Shown here in pieces: positions 8,007-35,631 of a stretch of DNA of 64,000 nucleotides. How positions within the stretch are numbered: position 1 is the first letter of the stretch; the number at the start of each line of letters is the position of its first letter. The position numbers and the translations under genes were made by a program. Source of the stretch: a virus; IMG/VR virus record IMGVR_UViG_3300005613_000002, positions 124,001 through 188,000 of that record; one strand, given 5' to 3'. The notes under the pieces were generated by a model, which searched no databases, was not told where the DNA came from, and worked only from the letters and a program-made list of their open reading frames with translations.

Positions 8007-8366
8007 GGGGCAGCACGGTTTTGACAGCGTGTATGAGTGATAATGTAAGCAAGTAGTAGTTGAATTAATCTACTTTAAAAGGATTCAAAACTATAAATGT
8101 AGAAGACATTATGTCTATCCAAACTTCTGTAACAAGAGGTGAAAGCGTATTTGCAAGAAATACTGAACTTGCAATTGCAGCATAGGAAACAAGAAAACAG
8201 TAGAACCATCTGATGATGTTACGATTTGTGTGATTACGTTAACACCTTAGATGAAAAACTCCACAGCAATCATACTATTTTTGGAAGGTTAGAAAACTTT
8301 ATCCTAAACTTGTAGAAATCTTATTAATCACATGTTTGGACAGGGGTTCGATTCCCCTCTGCTCCA
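8007..8366 (+). ncRNA. ssrA: tmRNA (ribosome rescue)
   Basis: 360 nt. 5' ggggcag pairs with 3' ctgctcc; ttttgacag follows the 5' acceptor strand and gtttggacagggg-ttcgatt-cccct forms the T-arm, as in bacterial tmRNAs. An internal frame from GGT at 8138 to TAG at 8183-8185 encodes GESVFARNTELAIAA, starting GE like Bacteroidetes tags and ending in a hydrophobic AIAA degron-like tail. One-piece form, no CCA encoded. No smpB is visible in this window, so the host SmpB would be used. The exact resume codon is inferred. Confidence 0.93.
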
Positions 8367-8380
8367 CTAAAATAATTATT

Positions 8381-17547: not shown

Positions 17548-17556
17548 TTATCAATT

Positions 17557-17598
17557 AATCAAGAAATTTGCTTTAAATTATTAGCAAATTTCTTGATT
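17557..17598 (+). terminator. Terminator after nrdJ
   Basis: Perfect 16-bp inverted repeat aatcaagaaatttgct / agcaaatttcttgatt around ttaaattatt. Confidence 0.75.
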
Positions 17599-17834: not shown

Positions 17835-19133
17835 ATGAATAGAGGATTCAATTTTAGGGTTTACCCAACTGAAAAACAACGTGAATATTTTAATGAATGT
17901 TTTAGAATTTCAAATTTCATTTATAATTATTCTTTAAGACAACAAATAGACATATCTGAAAGTTTAGATGATATGGGAATTAAAGACAAAGAAGAAAGAA
18001 ATAAATATATGACAGTTAATAAATTATATTTCAATAAATATAAAATGAGTAATTTATTAACTCAAATGTCTAAAACAGAAGAATATTCCTTTTTAAATAT
18101 CAATTCTTTATTAAGAGGTTATTCGTTAAGACAAATTGATAATGCTTTTAAAAATATGAGAAAAACTGGTGCTGGTTTTCCTAAATTTAAAAATAGATTA
18201 TCAAAAAAAACATATTCTAGTCAAATTCAAAAAAGAACTAAATTTCATTTAAATTTAAATAATGAAAAATTTGGATATTTATCGACACATAAAATTGATA
18301 AATTAAAAATATCATGTCATGATGAATATTTTAGAAAAAATTATAAAGATAATACAAAAATTAAATTAAATTCATTTACTATTACAAATAAAGGTAATCA
18401 ATATCATATATCAATTCAGGTAGATGTTATTGACCCAAATTTTAATTTAAAACATAAAGAAAGTGAAATTAATGAAAATTCATCAATAGGAATTGATTTA
18501 GGAGTTAAAAGACCAATTACTACATCAAATATTAATGATTTCGATGAAAAAATATTTTCAACTCAAATACAATTATTAAAAACGTATAGTGAAGAATTAA
18601 AAAAATTATCATCAATATTAAATAAAAAACGTGATTACCATAAAAAAAATAAAACAGATATTAAATATTGGGAAAGTGTTAATTATATTAGAATAAAAAA
18701 TAAAATTAGTTCACTACATATTAAAATTGGTAATATTAGAAGTAATATTCAACATAATATAACAAAAAAATTAATTAATTTAGATAATGTTGATTCATAT
18801 ATTCTTGAAGAATTAAAAACTAAAAATATGATGAAACGTAGTGGGAAAGGTTTATCTAATAATAAAAGTGGGTTAAATAGAGTACTTAGTGATGTTGGAT
18901 TATATGGAATAAGAGAAAAATTAACATATAAAGCTGAACGTATTGGTAAAAATGTTATTACAGTACCACCACAATATACTTCACAAAAATGTTCGAATTG
19001 TGGTCATATTAATAAGAAAAATAGAAAATCTCAAAGCAAATTTAATTGTGTTAAATGTGGTTTTAAAATTAATGCAGATTTAAATGCTGCGATAAATATA
19101 AAAGATAAATATTTTAAAAAAAATGTTGTTTAA
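17835..19133 (+). CDS. Miniature RuvC nuclease, TnpB/Cas12f-like, next to a CRISPR array
   Basis: 432 aa. N-terminal FNFRVYPTEKQREYF is the TnpB/Cas12f opening. RuvC-I SIGIDLGVKRPI (D221), RuvC-II SYILEELKTK (E325) and RuvC-III INADLNAAINI (D415) give a complete catalytic triad; C386, C389, C405 and C408 form the zinc ribbon between II and III. Size fits both TnpB (about 370-430) and the smallest Cas12f (about 420). The CRISPR array begins 177-243 nt after the stop on the same strand, with no cas1/cas2 and no TnpA, arguing for a minimal type V effector rather than a plain IS605 passenger. Whether it binds crRNA is inference. Confidence 0.85.
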   Translation: MNRGFNFRVYPTEKQREYFNECFRISNFIYNYSLRQQIDISESLDDMGIKDKEERNKYMTVNKLYFNKYKMSNLLTQMSKTEEYSFLNINSLLRGYSLRQIDNAFKNMRKTGAGFPKFKNRLSKKTYSSQIQKRTKFHLNLNNEKFGYLSTHKIDKLKISCHDEYFRKNYKDNTKIKLNSFTITNKGNQYHISIQVDVIDPNFNLKHKESEINENSSIGIDLGVKRPITTSNINDFDEKIFSTQIQLLKTYSEELKKLSSILNKKRDYHKKNKTDIKYWESVNYIRIKNKISSLHIKIGNIRSNIQHNITKKLINLDNVDSYILEELKTKNMMKRSGKGLSNNKSGLNRVLSDVGLYGIREKLTYKAERIGKNVITVPPQYTSQKCSNCGHINKKNRKSQSKFNCVKCGFKINADLNAAINIKDKYFKKNVV

Positions 19134-19309
19134 ATCGAATATTGTAATTATATTCGCATATTGAAATAAAGTTCTTTGAAAGATAAATATTAAAATCATG
19201 TGGGTGATGTGGCATCCGAGATTTAAAAAAATAAAGTTCTTAGTAAATAAAGCAATTTTATCTCCAATAGGATTTAAAAAATGAATTGAATTTATGATTA
19301 TAGAATTGA
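19134..19309 (+). other. Nuclease-array intergenic region, possible tracrRNA or leader
   Basis: Begins with hairpin cgaatat-tgtaatt-atattcg whose loop ttgtaatta complements 8 of 9 bases of taactacaa at the repeat 3' end. Also contains a 28-codon ORF (19198-19284, MWVMWHPRFKKIKFL ...) of doubtful coding status. Could hold a leader, a tracrRNA or an omega-RNA-like scaffold. Confidence 0.4.
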
Positions 19310-19666
19310 ATCTTACTACTTTTATAAATGTATTATAACTACAACGATGTCTTCGCATCATTCCATTGACATTCTGGTAGTGTTTACCTAAAAAAGTAAG
19401 GTAACTACAACCTACCCATAACATAAACGTTTTCAGATTTCGGTAGTGTTTACCTAAAAAAGTAAGGTAACTACAACCAGCAAATGTTTTATAGTTTTTA
19501 CCATCAAGGTAGTGTTTACCTAAAAAAGTAAGGTAACTACAACAAGTGAACTACAAGAAATATACAGCGAATTGGTAGTGTTTACCTAAAAAAGTAAGGT
19601 AACTACAACATTTCCAATCGTAAGATATTTTGGGTTGTGTTTACTAAAAAGTATGGAAACTACAAT
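19310..19666 (+). CRISPR. CRISPR array, 36-nt repeats and 30-nt spacers
   Basis: Four identical 36-nt repeats at 19376-19411, 19442-19477, 19508-19543 and 19574-19609, starting ggtagtgtttacct and ending aaggtaactacaac. Spacers of exactly 30 nt at 19346-19375, 19412-19441, 19478-19507 and 19544-19573, all different. A degenerate repeat ending taactacaac precedes (about 19310-19345); a 23-nt spacer and a degenerate repeat (19633-19666) close the array. GTAGT..TTACCT pairs with AGGTAACTAC, giving a hairpin just 5' of the spacer, as type V crRNA handles have. Same strand as the nuclease. Confidence 0.93.
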
Positions 19667-35543: not shown

Positions 35544-35616
35544 GCTCCTGTGGCTGAATGGTTAAAGCAATGGACTCTAAATCCATTTTTTGCAGGTTCG
35601 AATCCTGTCAGGAGCG
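35544..35616 (+). tRNA. Amber suppressor tRNA (anticodon CTA)
   Basis: Acceptor gctcctg/caggagc, anticodon arm atgga-ctctaaa-tccat (five perfect pairs), so positions 34-36 are CTA and read UAG. T-arm gcagg/cctgt, G73, class I. A casual reading of TCT (Arg) would need a broken stem. Charging amino acid not determinable by eye; Sup-CTA tRNAs occur in phages that recode TAG. Confidence 0.88.
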
Positions 35617-35631
35617 CAAAAAATAAATATA

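What the first reader, a model, noticed from the sequence alone, without database searches (positions are those of the whole stretch)
17835..19666. Phage-encoded miniature type V CRISPR locus: 432-aa RuvC nuclease plus array
A complete TnpB/Cas12f-like nuclease (D221, E325, D415, four-Cys zinc ribbon) is followed on the same strand by four identical 36-nt repeats with exactly 30-nt unique spacers and degenerate end repeats. There is no cas1, cas2 or transposase. Repeat 3' ends form a hairpin next to the spacer, as in type V crRNAs. This looks like a minimal, adaptation-less CRISPR effector carried by a phage, possibly against rival phages or host elements.
Basis: partly seen in the sequence, partly recalled or inferred. 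Interest (0 to 1): 0.93.

Follow-up and report, generated by a model that had tools for sequence, protein, structure and literature searches.

The report
Phage TnpB-like nuclease with CRISPR array
A giant phage carries a tiny DNA-cutting enzyme of the TnpB/Cas12 kind directly in front of a short, frozen CRISPR array: a new and isolated example of transposon nucleases being turned into CRISPR weapons, which matters because its guide RNA looks like an intermediate between the two.

Summary
The locus is real. A 432-aa RuvC nuclease (17835-19133) with intact D221/E325/D415 and a four-cysteine zinc ribbon is followed, 176 nt downstream on the same strand, by four identical 36-nt repeats with 30-nt spacers and a degenerate repeat at each end. 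The record is a 321-kb virus with terminase, portal and tail sheath; no Cas1, Y1 transposase or serine recombinase was found in it. By profile and by fold the nuclease is closest to TnpB, not Cas12f. In trees it is a lone long branch whose place is unresolved. None of its 160 nearest sequence relatives has an array downstream. Neither repeat nor tested spacers matched anything. No tracrRNA anti-repeat is detectable, although the same test finds one at the AsCas12f1 locus. However, the only strong hairpin in the gap sits right after the stop codon, and its loop can pair with the last bases of the repeat, as in the pseudoknot of ISDra2 omega-RNA and apparently AsCas12f. Best reading: an adaptation-less, phage-borne, TnpB-derived type V (V-U) effector with array-supplied guides. 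This kind is known (about 50 inferred TnpB-CRISPR associations; huge phages with V-U/V-F systems); this is a new, isolated variant. Targets and activity are unknown.

The parts
17835..19133 (+). 432-aa TnpB-like RNA-guided nuclease (RuvC triad D221/E325/D415; zinc ribbon C386, C389, C405, C408)
   Evidence: ORF; guided_TnpB 4.6e-65; catalytic residues invariant; AlphaFold2 pLDDT 87.6, best PDB fold ISFba1 TnpB; only such gene in the record
19134..19309 (+). 176-nt non-coding gap where a tracrRNA/omega-RNA-like scaffold would lie (inferred)
   Evidence: position matches the 294-nt tracrRNA-bearing gap of the AsCas12f1 locus; not unusually stable overall (z about 0)
19136..19156 (+). 7-bp hairpin CGAATAT-TGTAATT-ATATTCG just after the stop; TTGTA in/next to the loop can pair with TACAA at -6 to -2 of every repeat (candidate stem 1 plus pseudoknot)
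   Evidence: only Watson-Crick hairpin of 6 bp or more in the gap; same feature in 37/3000 shuffled gaps and 55/4972 genome windows; the AsCas12f1 gap shows the equivalent feature
19164..19176 (+). 13-mer AAATAAAGTTCTT, copy 1 (role unknown)
   Evidence: occurs only twice in the 321-kb genome, both in this gap
19229..19241 (+). 13-mer AAATAAAGTTCTT, copy 2 (65 nt from copy 1)
19310..19345 (+). 5' degenerate repeat (3' end TAACTACAAC identical to the repeat)
19346..19375 (+). spacer S1, 30 nt
   Evidence: no match in IMG/VR for its first 24 nt
19376..19411 (+). repeat 1 GGTAGTGTTTACCTAAAAAAGTAAGGTAACTACAAC
19412..19441 (+). spacer S2, 30 nt
   Evidence: no match in IMG/VR for its first 22 nt
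19442..19477 (+). repeat 2 (identical)
19478..19507 (+). spacer S3, 30 nt
19508..19543 (+). repeat 3 (identical)
19544..19573 (+). spacer S4, 30 nt
19574..19609 (+). repeat 4 (identical)
19610..19632 (+). spacer S5, 23 nt (shorter than the others)
   Evidence: sequence
19633..19666 (+). 3' degenerate repeat, 34 nt
   Evidence: sequence

Best explanation
This is a phage-encoded, adaptation-less type V-U CRISPR locus: a TnpB-derived nuclease that has left its transposon and takes its guides from a short static array. Proposed working: the nuclease binds array-derived crRNAs (repeat hairpin plus spacer) together with a scaffold RNA from the 176-nt gap. The first hairpin of that scaffold makes a 5-bp pseudoknot with the last bases of the repeat. 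The complex then cuts double-stranded DNA matching the spacers next to a TAM/PAM, through its intact RuvC site. Shown: gene, catalytic residues, array, absence of Cas1/TnpA/serine recombinase, TnpB fold, and the hairpin with a complementary loop. Inferred: RNA processing, use of the array by this protein, cleavage, and targets (probably competing mobile elements or host genes).
For: Intact triad and zinc ribbon, invariant in 50 relatives. Profile and fold place it in the TnpB/Cas12f superfamily. The array is directly downstream on the same strand, the order seen at the AsCas12f1 locus. It is the only CRISPR-like array and the only such nuclease found in the record. No Cas1, Y1 TnpA or serine recombinase. 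The pseudoknot-capable hairpin matches the ISDra2 rule (-6 to -2 pairing with the loop region of stem 1; PMC10097598), is uncommon by chance (about 1%) and has its counterpart at the AsCas12f1 locus. Phage context: tail sheath, terminase, portal.
Against: No spacer target found, so guide use is unproven. No close relative with an array, so the nuclease-array link cannot be tested by conservation. The gap is not unusually stable as a whole (z near 0), and the pseudoknot test was framed after looking at the sequence. Both ends of the array are degenerate, which also fits decay.
Confidence: 0.7

Rival explanations
1. A solo (IS605-like) TnpB and an unrelated CRISPR mini-array happen to be neighbours; the array works with host Cas proteins, or is inert, and the TnpB uses its own omega-RNA.
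For: By profile the protein is TnpB; phages often carry solo TnpBs (574 phage records match); viral mini-arrays that rely on host Cas are known (PMC11656645); none of the 160 nearest relatives has an array downstream.
Against: The array begins 176 nt after the nuclease stop on the same strand, at the place of tracrRNA plus array in AsCas12f1. The loop of the first post-stop hairpin is complementary to the repeat end. The repeat is absent from IMG/VR, and no repeat match was found in 396 genomes sampled from the phylum of the Bacteroides record G004, though the host phylum is not established.
Confidence: 0.17
2. A divergent member of type V-F (Cas12f) acquired from a bacterium, with an ordinary tracrRNA that was missed.
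For: Best single-sequence PDB hit is AsCas12f1 (3e-18) with the shared PQYTSQ-CS-CG / NR-Q-F-C-CG / NAD-NAA signature; grouping with the AsCas12f1 clade is not rejected (AU p = 0.655); same gene order.
Against: guided_TnpB scores far higher than any Cas12f model; enterobacterial TnpBs share the same signature; top folds are TnpBs; no anti-repeat, while the AsCas12f control gives 1 of 150.
Confidence: 0.1
3. A decaying relic: a once active locus now non-functional, the degenerate end repeats being signs of decay.
For: Degenerate repeats at both ends, a shortened last spacer, no adaptation genes, and the nuclease gene is very GC-poor (20.2%) with the lowest GC3 of the phage's long ORFs.
Against: Open reading frame with all catalytic residues intact and four perfectly identical repeats; degenerate terminal repeats are common in working arrays.
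Confidence: 0.08

Closest known systems
Type V-U loci (TnpB-like nucleases next to CRISPR arrays; about 50 independent associations inferred, PMC12669027)
   Same: TnpB-size nuclease, array, no adaptation genes
   Different: Phage-borne lone lineage; no detectable anti-repeat; no CRISPR-linked relative found in the collections searched
Virus-encoded TnpBs (401 and 433 aa) beside CRISPR arrays in landfill viruses (PMC12607003)
   Same: Same kind and almost the same size; in viruses; no adaptation machinery
Type V-F1 AsCas12f1 (locus L195)
   Same: Gene - non-coding gap - array order; first gap hairpin with loop complementary to repeat end; zinc-ribbon signature
   Different: AsCas12f1 has a clear anti-repeat; the window protein is nearer TnpB by profile and fold
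IS200/IS605 TnpB (ISDra2, ISFba1)
   Same: Best profile and best fold; pseudoknot geometry of omega-RNA
   Different: No TnpA in the genome; guide array of repeats instead of a single transposon end
LaTranC (TranC, PDB 9jfo/9jfq), recalled as a TnpB-to-Cas12 intermediate
   Same: Profile similarity (2e-54 with A1) and fold match (TMq 0.64)
   Different: Not the closest; what is known of its guide RNA rests on memory here, not on a test
Huge-phage V-U and V-F systems (Al-Shayeb 2020, PMC7162821)
   Same: Huge phage, compact array (their median is six repeats), no Cas1/Cas2/Cas4 reported there
   Different: Sequences not compared individually; this phage is only distantly related to known huge-phage records (RNR 54-59% to two of them)

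Membership tests
Type V-U CRISPR (candidate TnpB-like effectors with arrays) | TnpB-like RuvC nuclease with intact or recognisable active site | tested here: met
Type V-U CRISPR (candidate TnpB-like effectors with arrays) | CRISPR array adjacent | tested here: met
Type V-U CRISPR (candidate TnpB-like effectors with arrays) | Array linkage conserved in relatives | tested here: inconclusive
   no close relative found; none of 160 distant relatives has a downstream array
Type V-U CRISPR (candidate TnpB-like effectors with arrays) | crRNA-guided cleavage or interference | not testable with these tools
   needs small-RNA sequencing and an interference assay
Type V-F (Cas12f) | Effector scores above Cas12f family cutoffs or groups with Cas12f | tested here: not met
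   Cas12f2 83 bits against cutoff 450; in the tree outside the AsCas12f1 clade, though grouping is not rejected
Type V-F (Cas12f) | tracrRNA with anti-repeat between gene and array | tested here: not met
   52 of 150 shuffles as good; AsCas12f control 1 of 150
IS200/IS605 or IS607 transposon TnpB | TnpB profile above cutoff | tested here: met
   NF040570 220 bits, cutoff 100
IS200/IS605 or IS607 transposon TnpB | TnpA (Y1 or serine recombinase) with the element | tested here: not met
   none in the 321-kb record; solo TnpBs without TnpA are common, so this is not decisive
IS200/IS605 or IS607 transposon TnpB | Transposon ends and an empty site in a relative | not tested
   no closely related phage available
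TldR (nuclease-dead TnpB-derived phage regulators) | Loss of RuvC catalytic residues | tested here: not met
   D221, E325, D415 all present
CRISPR array | Identical repeats with unique, equal-length spacers | tested here: met
   4 identical 36-mers, 66-nt period; the last spacer is 23 nt
CRISPR array | Spacers matching foreign elements | tested here: inconclusive
   no match in phages, plasmids, 396 bacterial genomes, or (S1, S2 only) IMG/VR

The most novel reading that the evidence does not exclude
A phage-borne intermediate between TnpB and Cas12 in which the omega-RNA was split upstream of its guide-proximal stem: each crRNA repeat carries that stem itself (TTACCT/AGGTAA) and meets the trans scaffold only through the 5-bp pseudoknot. 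No repeat:anti-repeat duplex would be needed, and the scaffold could still run on in cis into the first degenerate repeat and guide S1 as an omega-RNA while the array supplies further guides.
Probability: 0.22. Interest if true: 0.78.

Novelty: new variant of a known kind. Interest (0 to 1): 0.52.

Why it matters
Type V CRISPR effectors are thought to have arisen many times when TnpB met a CRISPR array, and how one omega-RNA became tracrRNA plus crRNA is an open question. A nuclease that is still TnpB by profile and fold, with an array but no anti-repeat, is a directly testable candidate intermediate. It is also a compact (432 aa) effector maintained by a phage without detectable adaptation genes.

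Tried and rejected
Close relatives by sequence in IMG/VR and GTDB genomes: none. Repeat and repeat-variant scans of IMG/VR: exact 0; a gapped pattern gave 7 stretches, each a single match with no array and no nuclease. Zinc-ribbon motif scans: 0 and 1, the latter an ordinary TnpB. Spacer targets: none in own genome (9 or more mismatches everywhere), phages, plasmids, 396 genomes, S1/S2 in IMG/VR; the single E = 4e-4 genome hit is expected by chance. Rfam: nothing at the locus. tracrRNA anti-repeat in the gap: not significant; including the 3' end of the gene a -15.4 kcal/mol duplex at about 19054-19094 is reached by 10 of 150 shuffles, so not claimed. A second array-like hit at the start of the genome is a low-complexity tandem repeat. 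Empty site: no syntenic relative; the three records with the nearest RNR share only that gene. A search of 247 genomes for a close homologue was empty at E 1e-30 and uninformative.

Full report
WHAT IS THERE. The window is positions 124001-188000 of a 321,624-bp virus record. At 17835-19133 (+) lies an intact 432-aa ORF. After 176 non-coding bases comes an array on the same strand: a degenerate repeat (19310-19345), a 30-nt spacer, four identical 36-nt repeats (19376, 19442, 19508, 19574) separated by 30-nt spacers, a 23-nt last stretch and a 34-nt degenerate repeat ending at 19666. Four perfect 36-mers at exact 66-nt spacing cannot be chance.

CONTEXT. The record is a tailed phage: tail sheath, large terminase, portal and DnaB-like helicase. 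The locus sits between a ribonucleotide reductase gene and a vWA-domain gene, inside a stretch holding about 37 tRNA genes and a tmRNA. The RNR is 59% identical to that of a 634-kb uncultured phage record and 54% to a 462-kb one, but these share no other gene around it, and no near-identical phage DNA was found in the phage collection. No Cas1, Y1 transposase or serine recombinase is found in the record (the controls rang). Cas2 and Cas4 were not tested. The nuclease gene has the lowest GC3 (0.072) of 74 long ORFs in the phage, which fits a foreign origin but also simple AT drift.

THE PROTEIN. Pfam: Cas12f1-like TNB, HTH_OrfB and a sub-threshold OrfB match. NCBIfam: guided_TnpB at 4.6e-65, twice its cutoff; all Cas12 models are far below theirs. 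PADLOC ranks Cas12u4 and Cas12f models highest, but the table gives no cutoffs and these models overlap TnpB. PHROGs calls it transposase. RuvC D221, E325, D415 and the four zinc cysteines are invariant across 50 relatives. AlphaFold2 (pLDDT 87.6) matches ISFba1 TnpB best (TM 0.70 by query, 0.78 by target), then ISDra2 TnpB, AsCas12f and others, including LaTranC. So it works as a TnpB/Cas12-type nuclease; it is not shown to be a Cas12f.

RELATIVES. No close relative exists in IMG/VR or in the GTDB genome collection by peptide seeds; those tools may leave out records very near the window's own. Profile-guided searches gave 80 viral and 80 genomic relatives at about 24-46% identity. A detector that rings on the AsCas12f1 locus (L195) found no array just downstream of any of them; L122 and L132 have array-like repeats upstream and L080 a three-copy repeat about 2 kb away, probably unrelated. 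In maximum-likelihood trees the window protein is a lone long branch outside the AsCas12f1 clade. Uniting it with one TnpB set (L020, L027, L035, L110) is rejected (AU p = 0.028); uniting it with Cas12f1 is not (p = 0.655). Its long branch and skewed composition make the exact place unsure. An independent TnpB-to-array association is therefore likely but not proven.

THE GUIDE RNA. In AsCas12f1 my anti-repeat test gives a clear signal (1 of 150 shuffles as good); in the window gap it does not (52 of 150). But the gap holds one Watson-Crick hairpin of six or more pairs: CGAATAT-TGTAATT-ATATTCG at 19136-19156, starting three bases after the stop codon. The bases TTGTA in and next to its loop are complementary to TACAA, positions -6 to -2 before each spacer. 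This is the geometry reported for ISDra2 omega-RNA, where -6 to -2 pair with -102 to -106 in the loop region of stem 1 (PMC10097598). The AsCas12f1 gap has the equivalent: a 6-bp hairpin with loop GTTCAG and a repeat ending TGAAC. Chance frequency is about 1.2% in shuffled gaps and 1.1% in windows of the phage genome. The test was framed after inspection, so I treat it as a good lead. The repeat carries its own stem, TTACCT/AGGTAA, directly before the pseudoknot bases, in the place of stem 4 of omega-RNA. A split of the omega-RNA upstream of that stem would explain the missing anti-repeat.

MECHANISM. Most likely, crRNAs from the array plus a scaffold from the gap load the nuclease, which cuts DNA matching the spacers. 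Shown: parts and their conservation. Inferred: processing, loading, cleavage, targets. Spacers match nothing in the phage's own genome, in phages or plasmids, or in 396 genomes sampled from one phylum; the first bases of S1 and S2 match nothing in IMG/VR. S3-S5 could not be scanned in IMG/VR (cap reached). The target is open; rival phages, plasmids or host genes are all possible.

KNOWN OR NEW. TnpB joining CRISPR arrays is recognised as frequent (about 50 inferred events, with candidates gathered as V-U; PMC12669027). Huge phages with V-U and V-F systems lacking adaptation genes and with short arrays were reported in 2020 (PMC7162821). Two virus-encoded TnpBs of 401 and 433 aa beside arrays were reported from landfills in 2025 (PMC12607003); I could not compare sequences. 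The kind is known; this instance is an isolated lineage with an unusual guide-RNA layout: a new variant of a known kind.

Noticed in passing
window 2860-35617: About 37 tRNA genes and a tmRNA (8007-8367) in a 321-kb phage, all on the + strand, surrounding the locus.
   Followed up: partly
window 35544-35617: tRNA called Pyl with anticodon CUA, a possible amber suppressor; TAG ends only 6 of the 133 large ORFs with an assigned stop, and long ORFs show almost no in-frame TAG, so no wholesale recoding is seen.
   Followed up: partly
window 19164-19176 and 19229-19241: 13-mer AAATAAAGTTCTT occurs exactly twice in the whole 321-kb genome, both in the nuclease-array gap and 65 nt apart; role unknown.
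   Followed up: partly
window 17835-19133: Nuclease gene has the lowest GC3 (0.072) of 74 ORFs of 300 aa or more in the phage; its GC is 20.2%.
   Followed up: yes
L223 15001-19133: Ribonucleotide reductase of the 462-kb phage record LR756500 is split by about 1.6 kb between residues matching 489 and 485 of the window protein: possible intein or intron.
   Followed up: no
L122 1467-2986: Photorhabdus thracensis: a TnpB-like gene lies about 1 kb downstream of a 26-repeat array that looks like a host type I array.
   Followed up: no
window 17555-17597: AT-rich palindrome (AAGAAATTTGCT/AGCAAATTTCTT) after the ribonucleotide reductase gene, probably its terminator.
   Followed up: no
L020: Klebsiella phage KP13-16 also carries a TnpB-like gene inside a tRNA gene cluster, like the window.
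   Followed up: no
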